The translations under genes and the position numbers were made by a program. From Lactarius indigo (lineage: Eukaryota > Basidiomycota > Agaricomycetes > Russulales > Russulaceae), in NCBI GenBank assembly GCA_025766275.1, contig JAFKAC010000003.1, positions 186,001 through 250,000 on the forward strand: a stretch of 64,000 nucleotides of DNA, written 5' to 3'. The notes under the pieces were generated by a model, which saw only the letters and a program-made list of their open reading frames with translations, was not told the DNA's origin and made no database searches. Within the stretch, counting starts at the first letter, position 1. Every line of letters begins with the position of its first letter. Of this stretch, positions 7,740 through 34,242 are shown piece after piece.

Positions 7740-9391
7740 AGAGGAAGGTCGCAGTTTTGGTCGTAGTGGCACCGGGCAGTGATCCTGAGGACACTGGTAT
7801 TGATATAGAACGGCACATCGAAGCCACCACTCGTCACGTTAATGATGGGCATAGCGTATACATGACCCTTATGTCTTTCGTAGCTGCGGCGTAGCAGAGC
7901 CCTCACTGTATCTTCGGGCTTAGCTTTAAGATCAGATGATAGCAACTCAAGAATGAGAACGATTCTGGCTCGGTACCGCAGCACCGCAGTCACGTCGACG
8001 TGGGAAAATCCACGTCTGCACTCGAGTCTGCCAGTGGTTGATATTTGATCTGCACGGTCCTCAATTGAAAATTGTTCACGACTAAATTTACCTTCTCTCT
8101 GCATATTACTCACATGCGAGTCGGCGCTCAACGCTCAGTACTCGGTGTTTGCCTCTTGGTTTGCCTCCACTTGACTTGAAGTCGGTCGGTCAATATACCC
8201 GGGCCGGTCATGCTATTCCACCATCCTTCGTCCACCATGACTCAACCACCAGAGTTACGACTGCAAATCCTTCTGTTTACTGACGTGGGGGGGTTTGCGG
8301 GACGTGAGATAGGCCCTTGGATACAGTATTCCGAGTCCACGTCTGCCTTAGTCCTGGGAACCGTCGCTAGTAACAAGGTTAGCAGGTCACCCTCGATCTG
8401 AAATATCGTCTTCCACGCTGCTGACCCGAGAAAGTGATAGTGTACCACTAAGAATGATGCAGGACACATCGGCAATCGCGTGCTGGACTGGAAACTGGAG
8501 CCCGAAATCCAATTCTTTTGGAGTATTCTGCATACGCAACACCGAATGTGCAAAAGTATGAGGTACTCACAAGGTCCCATTTACTGGAAAACAAACGGTA
8601 TGGCGAGTTGTGAGCTGGCAGCGAGTAAAGGTCACATGCCCAATGACTTTGTGAAGTCAATTGTAAAGTGTGAACGGATTAGAACGCGAGCGAGGTTCTG
8701 ATGACCAAGAATTAAGCATTGCGCCCATTAACATTTTACAAGAAAGCCACGCGTCATCATGCATCACGACTGGAAACCGATTCACGACTTGAAGCCGGAG
8801 GCTTGAAGCGCCCGACGCTAGAAACCGAATTCTTACTGCGCATAGGGTAAAACTAGGCACTACCGTTTAGGAAGCTCTAAGCGCTACGATTAACAGTGTA
8901 TTTAGACTCGTTTTTCTCTGGTGGTTATAAGAGGCGCCGAGGAGTAACATATGTAAATCATGTTAGTCGTGTCTGGTCTGCTATGGCCTGTATTCTTGGG
9001 TATACACTGATTTTAATTTTAATTTTGAAAACAAACAAACAAACAAATTGGAACGTGGGCAATAGCAATATCGCTCGTACACACCTAGGATATTTTGCGA
9101 ACAGGATCAGATTCTTAGGAGCTACTTTTATAAGTACGGCCTTGTACTAAGTGAGGAGGCAACGTTTGTAAAGATATCTTTACTAAGACGCACAAGAATA
9201 ACAATAGTCGCGCTTGCATCTGATTTGAAGGCTACAATTTCGTCCAAAGGACGAAAACAGTCGTGTACTCGAAACTTTGAGAAACGTACAGTCACCAGAT
9301 AATACGTGCAGAGTCTGCAGACACTATAGCCTTGTTTCGGGTTGCAATAACATAACCTGAAAAATACTGAACGACAGGCAATCGGAATAAA
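7740..9391. other. Spacer between F-box copies 3 and 4
   Basis: The longest spacer of the cluster. 7740-8130 is the conserved upstream region of copy 3. 8600-9180 repeats the 5130-5700 spacer. Between them, 8200-8590 has no counterpart in the other spacers. It contains a plus-strand start at 8237 reading TQPPELRLQILL, reminiscent of an F-box start but without continuation. I treat this as non-coding or a small relic. Confidence 0.4.
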
Positions 9392-17518: not shown

Positions 17519-19192
17519 TCATATCCCCCAACGCGTCGGTGACCATCTACTAGTGAGGAGGTCCGCATGGTTGACGCCGAGGCGAATCATGTCTAAATTA
17601 GAAATAACTTTTCGTCCGGTTTCCGGACCCTTCCCACCCGCAGCTCGGGATTCACCCTTGACACGATCTGAAATGGGCATGTGGTTGTGCTGGTTGTGCT
17701 GGCTAAGGCTTTGCCGCTCTGCGAATCTGGAACTACAGAAGGTGCAGAAGTACTTGTCGTGGTGTAGCACCTAGTAACGTCCCACTATCCCGGGAGAGGG
17801 CCGGGAGGATCGTTGGTGGCGGAGATAACGTGAACGGAACTGTCGGAGGGCCACCGCAAAGGCAATGAATGACGATGCGGCTTCCCACAAGGGTCCGTAC
17901 GCCCGCCCAAGGTCCGGCACGCAAGAGGTCGCGCAGGGAAGGGAGCAAAGCCGTGTGCTCCCCGTCGGCTTGACACAAAGCGCGCAAGACAGACGTCGCA
18001 AGTTCACCGGCCACACGAAAGTCTTTGGCGCCGCCGAATGTGCGGATAAGCTCCACCCATTGCCCACCGTCCACGCCACCCTCTCCAGCGAGAGGCTTTG
18101 TTGTTTCGATGTCTATATCTTCGATACGTGATAGGAAAGGGGAAAACTGGTCACAAATTTGGGCCATGCAGGACAACTGCCAGTCCAACTGTTCGCACGA
18201 AATTCGCAGCTCAACCCGTGTAGGAGCTCTTGGGTGGGTAAAGCAGATGGAAATGGCATGGTTGGAGATTCGAATGTTTGCTCGACTATTCGGCTTTTGG
18301 ATCCCAATCCGGTCGATGAATCGGCCAAGTCGCAAAGCGTCCATAGTGGGTTGGCTAAAGAACGTAATATCGATATCCTCGAGACCTAGGAGCATCGATT
18401 CTGGCCACGAGGCTAGTCTAGGTACTTGCTAGTTCCCCGATATTTGAAGCAGGTGAGAGCAGGGAGAATGACGCGTTCCCTTGATGAGTGGAGGTAAGCT
18501 GAGGTGGTTGCGGCGTGGGCGGAAGGGAAAGGAAATGGAGTGATAGTTTTCTGAGTTGGGTCATGCCGGACAGGGGACTTGCGAACGGCTTCTGGCGAGA
18601 AATAACCGACTCTAGGAATTTCGTGAAGATGAAGGTCCACAATGTCCTTGTGAGAGTGAAAGGAAGCTGCAAGGAACGAGGGAAAGGCAATCCTGGTGGA
18701 GTGAAGACTACGGAGGTGAGGACCCCACCGAAAGGCACTAGGGCAGGGTCAGCTGCAGTGTTATCTCGAGAAAGAAGAACGAGCTTTTCTAGTTTCGAAA
18801 ATGGACTCAGAGATTGTGGAAACTTGCTCCAGGAGCGAGCTAGTGATGGTGAGGCTGATAGAGCTAACACGATCAGATTGCTTCAGTGCAGCCATGATAT
18901 TGCCCTCATCCTCGGGAGCAGGGGGATCGAGAGTGGGAGACCCTCCATAGTTCACAACTGAGAGGCAAACATGGCCAACAGTCTATGGTCTTCAAGACAG
19001 GCGTTCCGTACGTGCAGCGGAGGCGGAGATCTAGACCCACTGGTGACGTAAATATGATTTGTCGCCATCTTCGGGACACGTGTACGAGCGTTGGCCAATC
19101 CTGCGAAGAGCCGTCCAGAAAGTGAAGAAATATGTTCAGAAGGATGTCATCGAAGAGCATCTCAATCGTTGCTTGGTGAGAAAAAGGCCCTT
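17519..19192 (-). pseudogene. LRR-type F-box unit with C-terminal C2H2 finger, array A unit 2 (decayed)
   Basis: Aligned with the intact unit at 25966-27524, this copy shows the same order. The F-box (MLFDDILLNIFLHFLDGSS at 19160, then WPTLVHVSRRWRQIIF) comes first. Then come NYGGSPTLDPPAPEDEGNI, the repeat region with LSGMTQLRKLSLHFLSL, and a C-terminal zinc finger CTFCSSRFAERQSLSQHNQH with Cys-x2-Cys-x12-His-x4-His spacing. Frame changes occur near 18955, 18860, 18720 and 18400, and again before the finger, so no long product is possible. A 47-nt in-frame GT-AG junction (19193-19239) links it to the preceding unit, as in array B. Confidence 0.7.
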
Positions 19193-19239
19193 CTCAAAAC
19201 GTATTAGCGTGGGGTACTGGCACTATGTACACGTCGTAC

Positions 19240-20628
19240 CTGTTCCACGAAGTTCGTTGATCCGTGGTCGCTCATATTCTACCGCTATGAAACGACCAGA
19301 GAGTCGGCATGAGTGCATGAATGGTACTATGGCTTCCCACAAAGGCGCATAACGCGGCTCGGGCTCCCGGATGCAGAGTTTGTGCAGGGCAGGTAGCACA
19401 GTTTCGCGCCGTTTGTCTGATAGTTGCAAAGCATCCACGACGTTTGTCGAGTGATCTCCAGTTACGTGGAACCATTTTGCACCTTTGAATCGGCGGATAA
19501 GCCCCAGCCATTGTTCAGGGTCGCTGTCGTCCTGCCCACTTGATGGTCGCGGCGTGCTGATGTGTAGATCCTCCACACTGGCAAAGGAAAGTCGAAAAAT
19601 GACGGCAGATTAGATAGATGAAGAGAGACCGCTGTGCGTGGTGTCTTGCAAAGCACTTGCAGTTTGAGGCGCGTAGGAGATCCTGGTTGGGTTAAGGAAA
19701 TGGAAATGGCATGCTGAGAGGATAGAATATCGGCCCGACGATGTGATTTCTGTATTTCCTATTCGGTCGACGAATTCGCGGAAGTTTGGATATGTCGAGG
19801 ATGTACATATCCAACGTGATTCGTGATATCCCTGAGACCAGGAGCATCGATTCCGGCCACAAGGCTTTCTAAATACGCGTCTGTTCCTCGAAGATCAAGA
19901 CGAGTGAGAGCAGGGAGAGTAATGCGTTGGACCGGACGGGGAGGGAAATGTAATGTGATCTGCGGCGGAAATGAAATGGAGCGAGAGTGATCGGAGCTGG
20001 GTCATCCCGGACAAGGCAGTCACAAGCATTGATGGTGAAACGTGCCAAATATTGAGAACTTCGTGAAGTCGAAGATCTACAAGGTTCCTGGAAGAATAAA
20101 GAAGCAGGGGGAGTACGGGAAAGGTGATCCTCAGTCAAGTGGAGACTACGGAGGCAGTGGACCCCACCGAAAAGTGTTGGGTAGAGTCAGGCTGCGCGCT
20201 ATCTCGGGACAGAAGGACGAGGTCTTCCAGTCTTGAAAATGACCCCTCGATGACGGAAAGCTTTTCCAGAAGCGATCTTGTGACGGTGAGGCTGATAGAG
20301 CTAACACGATTAGATTGCTTTAGTACGGCCATGATACGGTCCTCATCCTCAGGAGCCGGAGGATCGAGTGCTGGAGAACCCCCGAAGTTCACGACGATAG
20401 GCAGGGTGGGCCAGTGATCCAGGGTCTCCGAGACTGGTGTTCCATGCGTACAGAAAATTCGGAGATTTAGGACCCATTGAGAGGCAAATACAATACGTCG
20501 CCACTTGCGACACGTTTGCACAAGCCTAGGCCAAAGGCGTGGAGAAGCATCCAGATAATAATGAAATATCTTCAGAAGCACCTTGTCGGAGAGCTTCCCG
20601 ATCGTCTCTTGTCGAGAAAGGGAACAAG
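19240..20628 (-). pseudogene. LRR-type F-box unit, array A unit 1 (decayed)
   Basis: The unit begins ETIGKLSDKVLLKIFHYYLD near 20628 and continues WPRLVQTCRKWRRIVFASQ and FGGSPALDPPAPEDEDRI, closest to the first unit of array B (30468-31824). Frame breaks occur near 20140, 19870 and 19580. The last part (19240-19576) is intact and reads HISTPRPSSGQDDSDPEQW to VEYERPRINELRGTG, ending in the phase-1 splice donor shared with array B. This is a pseudogene as written. Confidence 0.7.
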
Positions 20629-25965: not shown

Positions 25966-27524
25966 TCAGTCTCCATCCCCCTCCCCACTCGCAGTTTGGG
26001 ATTCCGGTCCCGCCATCCCCTCGACAGGAGGCACATGGTTGTTGGTGTTATGCAGACTGAGGCCTTGCCGCTCTGCGAAACTGGAGTTACAGAGGCCGCA
26101 GAAGTATTGTCGACGTATACCTGACATCTCTTCATTCCGGCAGGCGACTGGGGAGACCGTCGATGGTGGTGGTACTTGTACGGAACCGCCGGGGGTCCAT
26201 CGCGAGGTGATGAATGACGATGCGGCTTCCCACAAATTCCCATACGCCGATTTGAGCCCCGGTACACAAAGCTCACGCAGGGTAGGGAGAATAGTAGTTG
26301 AGTGTTCGTTAGATTGACATGAAGCATGTAATATAGCCGTCGCAAGTTCGCCAGCCACACGAAAGTCTTTTACGCCGATGAATGGGCGGATAAGCTCCGG
26401 CCATTGCCCACTATCCATGTCGTCCTGTCCAGTGGATGGTTTTGTCGCTTCGATGTCCAGATCTTCTACGCGTAACAGGAATGGGGAAAATTGGTTACAA
26501 ATTTGGGCCATGCAGGACAACTGCCAGTCCAACTGTTCGCACGAAATTCGCAACTCAACCCGGGCAGGAGCTCTAGGGTGGGTAAAGCGAATAGAAATAG
26601 CGTGCCCGAAGATTTGAATTTTTGCTCGACTATTTGACCTCTGGATTTCTATTCTGTTGACGAATCGGCCGAGTTGCGAAGCGTCCATGGTGGGTTGGCT
26701 AAAGAACGTAATATCGATATCCCCGAGACCGGGAGCATCGATTCTGGCCACGAGACTGTCCAGGTACTTGCTTGTTCCCCGATATTTGAAGTTGGTGAGA
26801 GCGGGGAGAACAACGCGTTCCCCTGCTGGTGGAGGTAAGTTGACGTGGTTACTGCGGGAGAGGAGGGAAAGGAAATGGAGTGATAGTTGTCTAAGTTGGG
26901 TCATGCCGGATAAAGCATTCGTAAACGCTTCTGGGGGAAAATAACCAGCCCTAGGAATTTCGTGGAGCTGAAGATCTACAATGTCTTGTGAGAGCGAAAG
27001 GAGCTGCGGTAACGAGGGAAAGGCAATCCTGGTGGAGTGAAGACTACGGAGGTGAGGGCCCCATCGAAAAGCGCTGGGAAGGGCCTGCTGCATGTTATCT
27101 CGGGACAGAAGAACAAGTTTTTCTAGTCCCGAAAATGGCCCAGGGATTGTAGAAAGTTGTTCCAGGAGGGTACCAGAGACAGTGAGGCTGATAGAGCTAA
27201 CACGATCAGATTGCTTCAGTGCGGCAATGATATTGGCCTCGTCCTGGGGAGTGGGGGGACCGAGTATGGGAGTTCCTCCGTAGTTCACGACGAGAGGGAA
27301 GCATGGCCAACAGTCTAGGGTCTTCAAGACAGGTGTCCCGTATGTACAATAGAGTCGAAGATCTAGACCTAGAGGTGACGCAAATATGATGTGACGCCAT
27401 CTTTGGGACACGTGTACGAGCGTTGGCCAAGACTGTGAAGAGCCGTCCAGAAAATGAAGAAATATTTCCAGAAGGATGTCGTCGGAGAGTATCTCGATGG
27501 TTACTTGGTGACAAAAGGGCCCTG
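25966..27524 (-). CDS. LRR-type F-box unit 4 of array B with C-terminal C2H2 zinc finger (3' exon)
   Basis: Open for 520 codons from the splice acceptor at 27525-27527 to the stop at 25966. The F-box lies at its start (VTIEILSDDILLEIFLHFLD, then WPTLVHVSQRWRHIIFASPL). Next comes VVNYGGTPILGPPTPQDEAN and a leucine-rich region of irregular repeats (LRSLHSTRIAFPSL; MTQLRQLSLHFLSL; LPALTNFKYRG). Only this last unit ends in a zinc finger (FCGLCNSSFAERQGLSLHNT), spaced Cys-x2-Cys-x12-His-x4-His. The F-box suggests SCF-type substrate recognition; the finger may bind nucleic acid or protein. It appears to be the last exon of a four-unit gene rather than a gene of its own: its only upstream ATG (27555) lies inside the intron. 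Confidence 0.8.
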
Positions 27525-27571
27525 CTGAAAATAAATTAGCGTGGGACGCTGGCATCAGGTATGTGTCATAC
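27525..27571 (-). other. 47-nt in-frame intron between F-box units 3 and 4
   Basis: On the minus strand the segment starts GTATGACACA and ends CGCTAATTTATTTTCAG, with a CTAAT branch site. Removing it joins phase-1 ends so that ILA runs into GPFCHQVTIEILSDD without a stop. Read through, the upstream unit stops inside this segment at a TGA that overlaps an ATG (TGATG). The acceptor is followed by another CAG (a NAGNAG pair). Confidence 0.75.
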
Positions 27572-28987
27572 CTGCCAAGATATCTGCCCCACGGAATTCA
27601 TTGGTCCATAGAAGTCGCTCGTATTCCACCGCTATGAAACGACCGGAGAGCCTGTATGAGCGCATGAACGGTTCTACAGCCTCCCGCAAAGGCGCATAAA
27701 GCGGTTCAGGTCCCCGTATACTGATTTTGTGCAGGTCGGGTAGCACAGTCCCGCGCCGCTTGTCTATTGGTTGCAAAGCACGTACGACGTTTGTCGAGTA
27801 GTCGCCAGCTACACGGAACCATTTTGCACCTCTGAATCGGCGGATAAGCGCTATCCATTGTCCACAGCTGCTGCTGTCCCGCCCACGTGATGGTCGCGCC
27901 ATAGTGATATGTAGATCCTCCACACGAAAAAGAGATGCTGAAAAATGACCGCAGATTTGAGCGATGCAGAACGGCTGCAAGCGTGATGTCTTGCAAAATA
28001 CTTCCAATTTAAGACGCGTAGGAGCTCCTGGCTGGGTTAAGGAGAGGGAAACGGCATCCCCGGAGAATAGAATATCTGCTCGGCGATGTACCTTCTGCAT
28101 TTCTATCCGATCAATGAATTTGCCAAGTTTTGGAACGTCGCATACAAGAAGGCTATTGGACAATGTGATTTCGATATCCCCGAGACGAGGAGCATCGATT
28201 CTGGCCACAAGGCCTTCCAAGTACCCTGTGATCCCTCGAAAATAAAGGCAGGTGAGAGCAGGGAGAGTGATGTGTTCCCTTGGTGGTGTAGGAGAGACAG
28301 TGTCAATTGCGGTGAAAGGGAAATGGAGTGAAATCGATTGAAGTCGGGGCGTCCCAGATAAGGCATTTGCGAATGCCTCAGGTGACAAACCGTCCGCAAG
28401 GGAAATTTCGTGAAGTTGAAATTGAAGTTGAATATCGACAAGGTTCCCAGAAGAATAAATGCGCTGCAGGAGTGCGGGGAAGACGATCCCTGTTAAGTGA
28501 AGTCTGCGAAGGTGCGGGCCCCACTGAAAATCGCTAGGCAAGGCACGCTGGGCGCCATCTCGAGACAGAAGAACAAGCTCTTCCAGTGTCGAATACGACC
28601 CCTTTATTGCGGAAACCTTTTCCAGAAGCGAACGAGTGAGAGTGAGGCTGATAGAGCTGACACGATCAAACTGCTTGATAGCGGCCACAATATTTTCCTC
28701 GTCCTCTGGAGCAGGCGGATCGAGCATCGGAGATCCTCCATAGTTCACGACAAGAGGTATGCGGCGTGGTGAACACTCTAGAGCCTTCAGGACAGGCATT
28801 CCGTACGTACAGTTGAGTCGAAGATCTAGACCCAGAGGTGACGCATATAGGATTTCTCGCCATCTTTGAGACACTTGTACTAGCGTTGGCCAAGACTGTG
28901 AAGAGCCATCCAGAAAATGAAGAAATATTTCCAGAAGGATGTCGTCGGAGAGTATCTCGATGGTTACTTGGTGACAAAAGGGTCCTG
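27572..28987 (-). CDS. LRR-type F-box unit 3 of array B (internal exon)
   Basis: 1,416 nt, an exact multiple of three with phase-1 introns on both sides. It opens with GPFCHQVTIEILSDDILLEI and FLHFLDGSSQSWPTLVQVSQ (F-box). Then come VVNYGGSPMLDPPAPEDEEN, leucine-rich repeats (LRRLHLTGIVFPALLQRIYS; LQSISLHFPF; LPALTCLYFRG), and YLEGLVARIDAPRLGDIEIT. It closes with FIAVEYERLLWTNEFRGADI at the next donor. No indel or stop interrupts it. Units 2 and 3 are very similar, suggesting recent unit duplication. Confidence 0.8.
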
Positions 28988-29034
28988 CTGAGAATAAGTT
29001 AGCGTGGGATACTGGCACTAGGCACGCATTGTAC
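28988..29034 (-). other. 47-nt in-frame intron between F-box units 2 and 3
   Basis: Minus strand: GTACAATGCG at the donor and CGCTAACTTATTCTCAG at the acceptor, with a CTAAC branch site. It has the same length and phase as the other junctions. An in-frame TAG inside it would end unit 2 if it were not removed. Confidence 0.75.
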
Positions 29035-30420
29035 CTGTTCCACGAAGTTTATTGATCCGTAGTCGTTTGTATTCCACCGCTATGAAATGACCGCCTAGCC
29101 ACCATGAGTGCATGAACGGTTTTACGGCCTCCCGCAAAGGCGCATAATGCGGCTCGGGTTCCCGTATGCAGAGTTTGTGCAGGGCGGGTGGCACAGTCCC
29201 ACGCTTCTCGATTAATAGTTGCAAAGCACGCACGACGTCCGTCGAGTATTCGCCAGCTACATGGAACCATTTTGTACCTCTGAATCGGCGGATAAGCTCT
29301 AGCCATTGTCCACGGCTGCTGCCGTCTTGCCCACCCGATGGTCGCGCCATACTGATGCGTAGATCCTCCACACGAGACAGGAATGCTGAAAATTGAATGC
29401 AAATTTGAGCGACGCAGAAAGGCTGCAAGCGGAATGTCTTGCAAAGTACTTGCAATTTAAGGCGCGTAGGAGCTCCTGGCTGGGTCAAGGAGAGGGTGAC
29501 GGCATGCTCCGAGAATAGAATATCTGCTTGGCGATGTACCTTTTGCATTTCTATTCGTCCAATGAATTCGCCAAGTTTTTGGACGTCATATATCAGGTTA
29601 TTAGAGAATGTGATTTCGATATCCCCGAGACGAGGGGCATCGATTCTGGCCACGATGCCTTCCAGATACCCTGTGATTCCTCGAAAAGTAAGGCGAGTGA
29701 GAGCAGGGAGAAGAACGCGTTCCCCGGACTGTGGGGGAGCAGAAATGAAAATAGGGGTGGAAGGGAAATGGAGTGACATCGATTGAAGCCGGGGTGTCCT
29801 AGACAAGGCATTTGCAAATGCCTCGGGTGACAAATTATCCGAACGGGATATTTCGTGAAGATGAAGATGAATATGGACGAGGTTCGAGGAAGAAGAAATA
29901 CGCTGCAGGAGCGCGGGAAAGACGACCCCTGTTAAGTGAAGTCTACGAAGGTGCGGGCCCCACTGAAAATCGCTAGGTAGGGTCAGCTGCACGCTTTCTC
30001 GGGACAGAAGAACAAGGTCTTCTAGGTTTGAAAGTGGTCTCTTGATCGTGGAAAGCTTTCCCAAAAGCGAGCGAGTGAGAGTGAGGCTGATAAAGCTAAC
30101 GCGACCAGACTGCCTTAGGGCGGCCACGATATTGTCCTCATCCTTGAGAGAAGGGGGATCGAGATTCGGGAACCCTCCATAGTTCACGACGATAGGCGTG
30201 GGCCAGTAATATAGAGTCTTCGGGACAGGCGCTCCGTATGTACAATGGAGCCGAAGATCTAGACCCAGAGGTGATGTGAATATGATGTGTCGCCATCTTT
30301 GGGACACGTTTACGAGCATAGGCCAAGACTGTGAAGAGCCATCCAGAAAATGAAGAAAGATTTTCAGGAGGACGTCGTCGGAGAGCATCTCAATCGTTAC
30401 TTGGTGACGAAAGGGTCCTG
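29035..30420 (-). CDS. LRR-type F-box unit 2 of array B (internal exon)
   Basis: 1,386 nt, a multiple of three, phase 1 at both ends. Starts GPFRHQVTIEMLSDDVLLKI, FLHFLDGSSQSWPMLVNVSQ (F-box). Continues VVNYGGFPNLDPPSLKDEDN, leucine-rich repeats, YLEGIVARIDAPRLGDIEIT, and ends FIAVEYKRLRINKLRGTG at the donor. It is uninterrupted. The first ATG in its frame is inside the F-box (30388), too late for a normal start, which supports reading it as an internal exon. Confidence 0.8.
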
Positions 30421-30467
30421 CTCAAAACATGTTAGCGCAGGGCGCTGGCACTATGCACGCGTCGTAC
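30421..30467 (-). other. 47-nt in-frame intron between F-box units 1 and 2
   Basis: Minus strand: donor GTACGACGCG, branch region CGCTAAC, acceptor TTTTGAG directly followed by CAG. Ending at GAG gives 47 nt and at CAG gives 50 nt; both keep the frame. An in-frame TAG (GTACGACGCGTGCATAG) shows that the units are separate frames only if the intron is retained. Confidence 0.75.
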
Positions 30468-31824
30468 CTGTTCCACTGAGCTCGTTGACCCATAGTTTTT
30501 CGTACTCCACCACTATGAACCGACCGAAGAGACTACATGAGTGCATGAACGATACTACAGCCTCCCGCAAAGGCGCATAAAGCGGCTCAGGCTCCCGGAT
30601 GCAGAGTTTGTGCAGGGAAGGTAGCACATTTCCGCGCTGCTCGGTTGATAGTTGCAAGGCACGTGCAACGTCTGTTGAGTAGTCGCCAGCTACATGGAGC
30701 CATTTTGCGCCTGTGAATCGGCGGATAAGCCCCAGCCATTGTCCACGGCTGCTGCCGTCCTGCCCACTTGGTGGTCGCGTTGTACTGATGCGTAGATCGT
30801 TCACACGCAAAAGGAAAGAGGAAAATAGACTGCAGATTTGAGCAATGCAGAACGGCTGCGAGCGTAATGTCTCGCAAAGTACTTGCAATCTAAGGCACGT
30901 AGGAGCCTCTGGCCGGGTCAAGGAAATGGAAATGGCACGTTCAGAGGATAGAATATCTGCTCGACGATGTACTTTCTGCAGTTCTATCCGGTCGATGAAG
31001 TCGCGAAGTTCGGGTACGCCGATGAGTCGGATGCGCTCATTGAAGAATGTGATTTCGATATCCCTGAGACGAGGTGCATCGATTCTGGCTACAAAGCCTT
31101 CTGAATACGCACCGATCCCTCGAAGATTAAGACGGATGAGAGCAGGGAGAATAAAACGTCCCCCAGACGGGGAGGGAAAGCCAACGTGATTAATGGCGGA
31201 AGCGAAATGAAGCGAAAGGAATTGAAGCTGGGTCATCCTGGACAAGGCATCCACGAGCGTCGCTGGTGAAGTATTGATAACTTCTTGAAGCTGAATATCT
31301 ATAAGGTTCCTGGAAGAATAGAGGAGCCGCGTGAGTGTGGGCAAGGTGATTCTAGTCAAGTGGAGACTACGGAGGCGTGGGCCCCACCGAAAACTGCTTG
31401 GTAGAGTAAGCTGCACGTCACCACGGGACAGAAGGACGAGGTCTTCCAGTCTCGAAAATGGCCCCCCGATTGCGGAAAGATTGTCCAGAAGCGAGCTTGT
31501 GACAGTGAGGTTGATAGAGGTAATACGACCAGACTGTTTCAGTGCGGCCTTAATATTGTCCTCGTCCTCGGGACCTGGGGGGTCGAGTGCTGGAGATCCT
31601 CCGAAGTTCACGACAATAGGCAGGGTGGGCCAGTATTCTAGAATCTTAGAGACTGGCGTTCCATGCGTACAGAATAGTCGGAGGTTCAGAGCCCGCTGAG
31701 ATGCAAAAACAATATGTCGCCACTTGCGACATGTTTGTACAAGTCTAGGCCAAAGACCTGGAGAAGCATCCAGATAATAACGAAATATCTTCAGAAGCAC
31801 TTTGTCGGAAAGCTTCCCGATTGT
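30468..31824 (-). CDS. LRR-type F-box unit 1 of array B (first F-box exon)
   Basis: 1,357 nt, ending in phase 1. Starts TIGKLSDKVLLKIFRYYLDA, WPRLVQTCRKWRHIVFASQR (F-box). Then FGGSPALDPPGPEDEDNIKA, leucine-rich repeats (LRSLHLTRITLPTLTRLLYS; MTQLQFLSLHFAS; LPALIRLNLRG), FVARIDAPRLRDIEITF, and FIVVEYEKLWVNELSGTG at the donor. No ATG precedes the F-box in frame: the codon before ACA ATC is GTG. The start must therefore lie in an upstream exon, probably 31875-32000. Intron TTTAG acceptor at about 31828-31830. Four such units in a row give about 1,905 codons. Confidence 0.8.
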
Positions 31825-31874
31825 CACTAAACGAGAAGGGGGAAATCAGCGAGCGGCGGAGGCACCGTATGGAA

Positions 31875-32089
31875 TATTCACCTTTTCCCTTCCATTTTCC
31901 AGTGGATCCGCTTGTTGTGGTAACAGGCTTGGGGGGCGATAAGTGTCGGGCACGGGCACGTCTATTGGGATATCCGGGATATACACTGTCACCCCCTGCG
32001 GCAGAGCATTGAAGACCCTAGATCACTTACTTTGGAGAACACATTAGGGGAAATCAACTGGGCAAGTATTGCCAGCGTATCCTTATATA
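31875..32089 (-). promoter_or_regulatory. Leader exon and TATA box of F-box array B
   Basis: The minus strand carries TATATAAG (32082-32089) and, downstream, a conserved possible exon reading VYIPDIPIDVPVPDTYRP and ending before a GTGAAT donor (31881). The region matches 20650-20875 of array A. A short ATG-started frame (MCSPK at about 32045) precedes a GTAAGT. The exact start codon and the join to unit 1 could not be settled. Confidence 0.45.
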
Positions 32090-32119
32090 GAATACACAGG
32101 CACTTGAAGTTATCACACG

Positions 32120-33361
32120 GCGCAACAAGGTTTTGGAGCATGGCGAACGCCACATACACGCACTATACACGCCTGATGTGTGCGCCAGCCAGGACCGCTG
32201 TGCACACTGCGGTAATAATTGCCGTGAGGTCTATCCTGTACTGTACTGTAAACCGCCGTGTGCACCGCTGTACAGCACCCCAGGCCTCCGACAGATGGAC
32301 TTATTGTACAAAAAATAAAAATACTGTAAAACAAAACAAAACACGGGGATGGGAAGGGCGCAGGGGTAACCCTCCTTGAACTCGTACCATCACTATTTCT
32401 CCTCCATTGGAGTTCTGGTGTTCTGGTCGAAGGCGTTCCCCTCGGGGGTTGTGGTGTCTATAGCCACGGGGACGCACTACCTACACCTGGCTGTAAGTCG
32501 CTTAGGCGCTGCCCACCACATCCCACTGTCAGGTACAGTGGCCCCCTCACTCTGCTATTTGCGCGTCACGACCACTCTCCCATCCATCATTCACACCTCC
32601 CGAATTCTTCTTCTGCCATCATCCACCACCAAGTAATGCCTACGTACGTTTGAGCTCATCCTTTTTACTCCCCAGACTTTAACGGCTTTTTAGCCTGTCC
32701 CCCTTTTCCGTTTGTTTACGTCGCGGCACATTCACTCTTATCAACCCTGCTCACTCGGCTCATCGCGACTACTTGCGCATGTATAAGGGGGCTCATCGCG
32801 ACCACTTACCCATGTATAAGGGAGGTGGGTTTTGTTGGCAAGACGGTAGTGAGTAGTGAGGGGTTTTTTTTTTTTTTTTTTTTACCACATAATGCGTAAC
32901 CTCATCCAATTTTATTGTACTAGTACCCTAGTACACCTGCTTGTCGTCGTGTATTATAGCCACAATTTTCCCTGCAATTGTGATGCAGTTGATGGACTCA
33001 TAACCAGCCGGTTGCATGAGAATGGGGGTCGCAAGCGACTAGTTGACAGCAGAGATACAGTAAGTTACTAGGAGCTCGACGCGTGCAATATCGATGTCGG
33101 CGTCGGCGAACTTTATCGTACAGTATTAGTCATGCCGAGTAATTCCACTCAAAAAATACCTCCGGACCCACATTTCAAGCTCTTAAATTTTTTATACAGA
33201 CTCTGAGCTTCCCCCGAAGAATCGTGACACGTCCATAGTAGTCCGAATATCACCGGGGGTTGGTGCATATAGCTTTTTCTAGGAAACCTGCTTGTCAAGG
33301 ACTCATGGAACCAGCACATCCTCAGTGTGTTGCATTTACATGGTATCACAAATTCGAGCGA
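32120..33361. other. Spacer with microsatellite-like repeats
   Basis: No gene was recognised. A 33-nt unit beginning ggctcatcgcgac and ending catgtataaggg is tandemly duplicated at 32757-32789 and 32790-32822 (30 of 33 positions equal). A run of 20 T lies at 32864-32883. Confidence 0.6.
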
Positions 33362-34242
33362 CTACTCGCGTTGTACCAGGGCTAACAGCCCTAACCCGCA
33401 CAAAAGCGCATATTTCAACTGCGGGAAGTCATTCTGCCAACGCGACCCTTAGTCTGATCTACGACAAGGAAAATACCGCCACGTACCAGAGCAATCGTCA
33501 CGTATCCGACGTATGGCAAGAATCTATCCAGAAGAAAAGAGCTGAGTAAGCACTAGACAGCCCTCACAACAGGGATGACGACGGACCCGCGGACTTTGCC
33601 AATTATGTGTTTGTGCTCCAACCAGTCGAGGCCCTGATACAGTTCTACGTCGTCGAGGTAGTTATTGTCCCCCTTGGTAAGGAGCAGCTGGTTTTCAGGG
33701 CGAGGCGTGGTCTCGCGAACGCTGCGAGCAGAGGTGAGCCTTCCACTCCCGCGCGTTATCGAAGGGAAAAGGGGGGAGACGAACCCATCGACAACCTTCA
33801 CGACGTCATGCGTCTCGAGAACACGGTGCACGATAGGGATGTCCTGGCCGGGGATCCTGTAGACGGTGATGTCGCCCGTCTCGTAGCGCTTGTTTGCAGG
33901 GTTTACAAGGAAGAGGAGGTCCCCGCGGTAGAACGCCGGTTCCATGGAGCCACTGAGGATTGTATGCGACACGCAAATGCCGTCGGCGTGGGGGTCGGAG
34001 AACGAGAGAGAAGAGGGACCACGCACCTGAGGACGACGACAATCGGCGATTCTGTATTTGTGATAAGTCCAAGGCCTTTCCAGATCATGAGACCCGAGGT
34101 AAGGACAGAGGCAAAGTTGAGGACCTGGAGGAGGACCTGTGGGGGGAGTGGGGTTAGTTCACGGAAACGCCGGATACAAAAAGGAACGACACACATGGCG
34201 AAAGCCAAGCCTTCGGAGTGTTTTGATCTCTTCTGAGAACAT
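33362..34242 (-). CDS. SEC11: Signal peptidase complex catalytic subunit SEC11
   Basis: Predicted CDS: complement(join(33362..33433,33487..33523,33587..33952,34027..34136,34195..34242)), 210 residues. Sec11 cleaves signal peptides on the luminal side of the ER membrane. Visible: start [16 protein letters not shown], a membrane anchor ([20 protein letters not shown]), the catalytic Ser in SGSMEP, the His in IVHRVLE, the Asp in [27 protein letters not shown], and the C-terminal segment [20 protein letters not shown]. All joins keep the frame. Inside the third exon a 63-nt stretch (donor GTTCGT after VVDG, acceptor CTCGCAG) could also be removed in frame, giving 189 residues, nearer the usual family length. 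Confidence 0.92.

What the first reader, a model, noticed from the sequence alone, without database searches (positions are those of the whole stretch)
25966..31824. Four F-box/LRR units appear to be fused into one gene through 47-nt in-frame introns
Seen: three junctions (30421-30467, 28988-29034, 27525-27571), each exactly 47 nt, starting GT, containing GCTAAY, ending AG, and each joining phase-1 ends so the next F-box is read without a stop. No room exists for promoters between units, the internal units lack a usable ATG outside the introns, and only one TATA box is found, upstream of unit 1. Known: Agaricomycete introns are short with CTNAY branch sites. Inferred: one transcript encoding about 1,905 residues with four F-boxes, which could bring several SKP1 molecules or substrates together. 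I know of no described F-box protein with four full F-box/LRR units, but I cannot search for one.
Basis: partly seen in the sequence, partly recalled or inferred. Interest (0 to 1): 0.9.

Follow-up and report, generated by a model that had tools for sequence, protein, structure and literature searches.

The report
Four-unit F-box/LRR gene in milk-cap
In the genome of the milk-cap mushroom Lactarius indigo, four F-box/leucine-rich-repeat units lie head to tail only 47-50 bases apart and are likely spliced into one protein of about 1,935 residues, predicted to be a ubiquitin-ligase adaptor with four docking modules where most of its relatives have two.

Summary
Three minus-strand junctions (30467-30421, 29034-28988, 27571-27525) are GT...GCTAAY...AG introns joining four open F-box/LRR units in phase 1; tandem NAGNAG acceptors make each 47 or 50 nt. 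GenBank already holds this locus as one hypothetical 1,935-aa protein, H4582DRAFT_822012 of Lactarius indigo; six exons of the window reproduce it exactly.

It is not an isolated oddity. The genome holds at least 162 such units at 96 places. At 73 places two or more units are adjacent; among these only this one has four and none has three. The usual gene is a doublet: N unit, phase-1 intron, C unit. A motif rule blind to frame keeps the frame at 67 of 75 junctions. U1 groups with N units, U2 and U3 form a separate middle clade, U4 is C-type: an N-M-M-C expansion of the doublet. Middle units also occur in L. deliciosus and in unnamed sequences.

Transcripts, SKP1 binding and substrates could not be tested, and my searches found no paper on it. 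Best reading: an SCF-type adaptor carrying four F-box/LRR modules, a new variant of a known kind.

The parts
32084..32089 (-). TATA-like box, about 40 nt upstream of the start codon
   Evidence: only TATA[AT]A on the minus strand of 25966-32300; promoter role not tested
32031..32044 (-). 5' exon 1 (ATGTGTTCTCCAAA)
   Evidence: public model P0121 reproduced exactly
31882..31961 (-). 5' exon 2
   Evidence: public model P0121 reproduced exactly; my own first choice of acceptor began this exon 24 nt earlier
30468..31826 (-). exon 3: unit 1 (U1), F-box/LRR, N-type
30418..30467 (-). junction intron 1, phase 1, 47 nt (to 30421) or 50 nt (to 30418), GCTAAC
29035..30417 (-). exon 4: unit 2 (U2), F-box/LRR, middle type
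28985..29034 (-). junction intron 2, phase 1, 47 nt (to 28988, public model) or 50 nt (to 28985), GCTAAC
27572..28987 (-). exon 5: unit 3 (U3), F-box/LRR, middle type
27522..27571 (-). junction intron 3, phase 1, 47 nt (to 27525) or 50 nt (to 27522), GCTAAT
25966..27521 (-). exon 6: unit 4 (U4), F-box/LRR, C-type, with a C-terminal C2H2-like stretch and the stop codon; its first 240 nt resemble U3

Best explanation
Window 25966-32044 (minus strand) is one Lactarius indigo gene, likely spliced through three phase-1 junction introns of 47 or 50 nt, that encodes a predicted 1,935-residue protein of four F-box/LRR units (N-M-M-C) and would act as a multi-module SCF ubiquitin-ligase adaptor. Shown: four open, constrained units; intron signals conserved at the same place across a large two-unit gene family; a public model of the whole as one gene. 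Inferred: two middle units were added to a doublet by unequal recombination between homologous units. Inferred: each F-box docks SKP1-CUL1 and each LRR solenoid offers its own surface, so that one chain holds several ligase cores or several substrates. Not shown: transcript, protein, SKP1 binding, substrate.
For: Public single-gene model over all four units, reproduced exactly by six exons of the window. The junction intron recurs at the same phase-1 place: with frame required it fits 74 of 75 junctions, 73 in phase 1, with length mod 3 = 2/0/1 in 47/15/12; blind to frame it keeps the frame at 67 of 75, 57 of 65 distinct; signature 70 of 75 against 2 of 1500, 8 of 3750 and 0 of 75 in controls. 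29 of 32 species-named proteins with a complete junction have the short, spliced linker. All three junction introns here carry in-frame stops, so reading on needs splicing. Ka/Ks between the four units 0.36-0.54. Middle-type relatives in L. deliciosus and unnamed sequences; P0018 and P0028 read past the intron into an out-of-frame next F-box. F-box plus LRR fold for U1: pLDDT 82.7, F-box/LRR ligase subunits first in Foldseek.
Against: No transcript seen. The public model may be ab initio. L. deliciosus gene models split the locus: P0025 (U1 relative) ends at the intron-1 stop and P0013 (U3 relative) begins behind the F-box and reads into the intron. U2 has an ATG before its F-box. Pfam finds no F-box in U2 or U4 alone and U1 and U3 score under the cut-off alone; it passes only over the whole protein. 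Foldseek TM-scores are low (0.22-0.39 for the first four) and plain LRR proteins follow closely in VIA. One junction of 75 has no frame-keeping intron and 8 of 75 fail blind to frame.
Confidence: 0.72

Rival explanations
1. One gene as above, but only some F-boxes dock SKP1; the other units serve as extra substrate-binding or structural LRR modules, so it works as a single SCF adaptor with a longer binding surface.
For: Pfam recognises U1 best (20.6 bits), U3 weakly (13.7) and U2 and U4 not at all when scanned alone; the F-box windows are only slightly more constrained than the rest in N units and not in C units.
Against: F-box cores of all four units keep the same pattern (LSDxxLLxIF...WPxLV...RWR); Pfam is insensitive here, as F-box-like is found in 27 of 28 two-unit proteins taken whole.
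Confidence: 0.4
2. Four separately transcribed genes, or truncated products from retained introns: each unit ends at the stop inside the following 47-50 nt segment.
For: Each segment holds an in-frame stop; L. deliciosus model P0025 ends exactly there and P0013 starts inside a unit; U2 has an ATG before its F-box.
Against: U3 and U4 have no in-frame ATG before or within the F-box; one TATA-like site only; splice signals and frame conserved over 75 junctions; no 5' exon like that of U1 exists between units, which are 47-50 nt apart.
Confidence: 0.12
3. A decaying tandem array or an assembly artefact without a coherent product.
For: A degenerate doublet with stops lies nearby at 17787-20602, so copies do decay here.
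Confidence: 0.05

Closest known systems
Two-unit F-box/LRR proteins of Lactarius (for example EDB89DRAFT_2239613, P0126; named only 'hypothetical protein')
   Same: Same units, same phase-1 junction place, N-type unit first and C-type unit last, 48-69% identity among most of the 28 aligned
   Different: Two units, about 1,050-1,460 aa; no middle units
F-box/LRR (FBXL) ligase subunits: FBXL2, FBXL17, TIR1, SKP2
   Same: Helical F-box followed by an LRR solenoid in the predicted U1 model
   Different: One F-box per chain in these (recalled); 11-16% identity to the model; U1-U4 repeat the whole pair four times
Baculovirus Lef-7 with three putative F-box domains (PMC6105029, passages read)
   Same: Several F-box motifs in one protein
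   Different: A small viral protein (287 aa in the case described) with motifs only, no full F-box/LRR units; the authors say their function remains to be shown
Soybean GmFBX505 (PMC5412402, passages read)
   Same: Two F-box motifs in one protein
   Different: The only one its authors report in a set of which they align 725 F-box proteins; motifs, not four full units

Membership tests
F-box/LRR (FBXL-type) proteins | F-box domain | tested here: met
   Whole protein P0121: F-box-like 39.3 bits (cut-off 24.3), F-box 25.6 (cut-off 20.5); single units under the cut-off or unseen
F-box/LRR (FBXL-type) proteins | LRR solenoid behind the F-box | tested here: met
F-box/LRR (FBXL-type) proteins | Binds SKP1 in an SCF ligase | not testable with these tools
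   no binding data
Two-unit Lactarius F-box/LRR family | N-type unit first and C-type unit last | tested here: met
   U1, U2, U3 on the N side and U4 on the C side of a 243-unit tree
Two-unit Lactarius F-box/LRR family | Phase-1 intron between units | tested here: met
   three of three junctions here, 73 of 75 in the family in phase 1
Two-unit Lactarius F-box/LRR family | Exactly two units | tested here: not met
   four units; hence an expanded variant, not an ordinary member
Two-unit Lactarius F-box/LRR family | C-terminal C2H2-type stretch (seen in some members) | tested here: inconclusive
   CGLC...H...H visible in U4, but Pfam zf_C2H2_ZHX only 11.5-13.4 bits, cut-off 27; zf-C2H2 in 3 of 28 two-unit proteins at E 0.01
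Single-transcript gene | Spliced mRNA over the three junctions | not testable with these tools
   no RNA reads available; only gene models

The most novel reading that the evidence does not exclude
Lactarius has evolved true multi-headed ubiquitin-ligase adaptors: a four-F-box chain, kept across species with its own class of middle units, that gathers several SKP1-CUL1 cores around one or more substrates, with retention of the stop-bearing junction introns as a dial for one to four heads.
Probability: 0.15. Interest if true: 0.85.

Novelty: new variant of a known kind. Interest (0 to 1): 0.55.

Why it matters
SCF adaptors are generally described with one F-box per chain (recalled), and the exceptions I found are slight: one protein with two F-box motifs in a soybean survey (PMC5412402, passages) and three putative motifs in a small viral protein (PMC6105029, passages). 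A fungal family with at least 73 places holding two or more adjacent F-box/LRR units, and one holding four, offers a natural series for asking whether several F-boxes on one chain recruit several ligase cores. It also bears on why mushrooms keep so many F-box genes: 210 are annotated in Flammulina filiformis, 80 of them developmentally expressed (PMC7567395, passages).

Tried and rejected
Fusion of four single-unit genes: rejected, since doublets with the same junction intron are the common form of the family in this genome. Read-through without splicing: rejected for this locus, since all three introns carry in-frame stops. Recent assembly duplication: rejected, Ks 0.35-1.02 between units. 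F-box constrained and LRR free as a sharp contrast: only weakly seen in N units, not in C units. Arrangement of units within a doublet: the AlphaFold model of P0126 has pTM 0.45 and a low-confidence linker (residues 471-491), so nothing was concluded. PDB by sequence profile: four matches at E up to 1, two LRR proteins and two SNF7 chains, no F-box entry. The third protein search, with the divergent doublet P0148, showed a second two-unit branch in L. hatsudake, L. pseudohatsudake, L. indigo and L. vividus.

Literature, seen as listings unless said otherwise: Lactarius + F-box gave 4 papers, none with a title on this subject; Lactarius indigo + genome 6; multi-F-box phrases 0 and 3; searches listed nothing that names the locus. 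Passages were read in PMC7567395, PMC5412402, PMC6921459, PMC8417538 (plus its section 8), PMC6105029 and PMC5029927. Only this open-access library was searched.

Limits: the three protein searches scored only the 7,990-7,998 candidates sharing most words, and one search listed 120 of 630 hits. L. indigo proteins of about 817-1,070 aa, where doublets would lie, fall between the length limits. Genome unit counts are lower bounds (the tool scored 83-93 of 601-661 candidates). In one search the frame was part of the choice of intron; one search is the test without it. The high identity of branch sites is partly by construction, as the best match to GCTRAY was taken. In one search proteins were kept only if the first unit matched past profile position 430 and the second began before position 12 (53 of 149).
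Full report
What is there. On the minus strand, 25966-31845, four open reading frames of 464, 467, 497 and 543 codons (stop to stop) follow each other with almost no space. They are one repeated unit, spaced 1,424-1,463 nt, 65-85% identical in DNA in the blocks found. The stretches between them start GT, hold GCTAAC, GCTAAC and GCTAAT, and end in two AGs three bases apart, so that a 47-nt and a 50-nt intron both keep the frame. Joined, they encode 1,945 residues with my own choice of 5' exon.

A public gene model exists. A search with the joined protein returned H4582DRAFT_822012 of Lactarius indigo, 1,935 aa, on a contig of 3,207,453 bp, the length of the window's contig. Six exons (32044-32031, 31961-31882, 31826-30468, 30417-29035, 28987-27572, 27521-25966) reproduce it letter for letter. 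So the window is L. indigo, and the single-gene reading is already in GenBank as a hypothetical protein. I could not learn whether RNA supported that model.

A family of doublets. One unit as query finds 93 places in the genome, another 83, a third 90; these are lower bounds. The first two merge to 162 unit places in 96 loci: 63 of two units, 32 of one, one of four; the third query adds none. In the 40 loci fetched whole, 33 have at least two adjacent units. With the 40 two-unit places fetched as junctions only, 73 of 96 loci have two or more, this one four, none three. Sixteen single-unit places were not fetched. Contigs C68 and C254, and some other pairs, show parallel series of hits and may be haplotypes or duplicated segments, so independent loci are fewer; 65 of 75 junction introns are distinct. 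Among the 149 proteins returned have one full unit, 32 have two, one has four, none has three.

The junction is an intron, by sequence evidence. With frame required, an intron can be placed at 74 of 75 junctions, 73 in phase 1, lengths 46-60 nt (one pick of 72); length mod 3 is 2, 0, 1 in 47, 15, 12. With frame ignored and only donor, branch and first AG used, the frame is kept at 67 of 75 (57 of 65 distinct), where a third would be expected by chance. Only 9 of 75 junctions are open and in frame unspliced. The full signature is at 70 of 75, against 2 of 1500 coding windows, 8 of 3750 shuffles and 0 of 75 antisense. Between distinct introns the donor is more alike (77%) than most of the rest (39-54%); the branch value (86%) is partly by construction. 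Among 53 proteins that hold a complete junction, 29 of 32 with a species name (seven Lactarius species) have a linker of 3-16 residues, as after splicing; P0131 (30) and the divergent P0148 and P0149 (90, 95) do not; all 21 without a species name have 26-39 residues, as when an ORF caller reads through an open intron. These are gene models, not transcripts.

Origin of the four. A tree of 243 units splits into an N side (69 of 71 first units) and a C side (68 of 69 second units); U1, U2 and U3 fall on the N side, U4 on the C side. In a careful tree of 27 rows, U2 and U3 lie in a separate clade of ten (support 100/97), with L. deliciosus P0013 sister to U3 (100/100) and with P0001, P0017, P0019, P0028, P0060, P0016 and P0084. 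P0001 and P0017, P0028 and P0060, and P0016 and P0084 are listed with equal contig lengths (11032, 4432, 75655), so I infer that each pair lies on one contig. P0018 and P0028 read on through the intron into an out-of-frame F-box of a next unit. Arrays with middle units therefore exist beyond this genome, though their full order is unknown. In L. indigo the middle type appears only here: beyond the four units of this locus the best match to U3 is 57% identical.

U4 is a mosaic. Its first 240 nt are 88.7% identical to U3 but at most 83.2% to any of 39 other C-side units compared, while bases 361-900 are 73.7-75.8% identical to U1-U3 and up to 84.1% to C-side units. This points to recombination between units at the intron and F-box, the likely route of expansion (inference).

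Function. All four units are open; Ka/Ks between them is 0.36-0.54. The U1 model (pLDDT 82.7, pTM 0.81) is a helical F-box and an LRR solenoid, and F-box/LRR ligase subunits lead the Foldseek list, at low TM-scores; FBXL2 and FBXL17 lead the VIA list, with other LRR proteins close behind. Pfam sees the F-box over the whole protein but in U2 and U4 alone it sees none. That each F-box docks SKP1 is inferred. Some relatives end in C2H2, SAM or ARID domains, so the C-terminal tail may be the variable part of the family (inference).

Against the reading. L. deliciosus gene models break the locus: P0025 ends at the intron-1 stop, and P0013 begins behind the F-box and reads into the intron. U2 has an ATG in front of its F-box. 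One family junction (L014) has no frame-keeping intron. No transcript was seen.

Verdict.

Noticed in passing
window 17787-20602 (-): A degenerate doublet of the same family: first unit with three stops, second unit broken into pieces.
   Followed up: partly
window 27286-27571 (-), start of U4: Intron 3 and the F-box start of U4 resemble U3 far more than the rest of U4 does, a sign of exchange between units.
   Followed up: yes
G000 contigs C68 and C254 (also C212/C281, C46/C226): Parallel series of family hits with equal spacing suggest haplotypes or duplicated segments in the assembly.
   Followed up: no
P0122 (L. vividus), P0142 (unnamed): Two-unit relatives with an added C-terminal ARID domain or two SAM domains.
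   Followed up: no
L021, L024, L026: Doublets whose junction intron is open and in frame, so that one ORF of 1,001-1,055 aa spans both units without splicing.
   Followed up: no
window 33553-34158 (-): ORF with SGSMEP...GDLLFLV, by eye like a signal peptidase I (SEC11) exon; recognised from memory, not searched.
   Followed up: no
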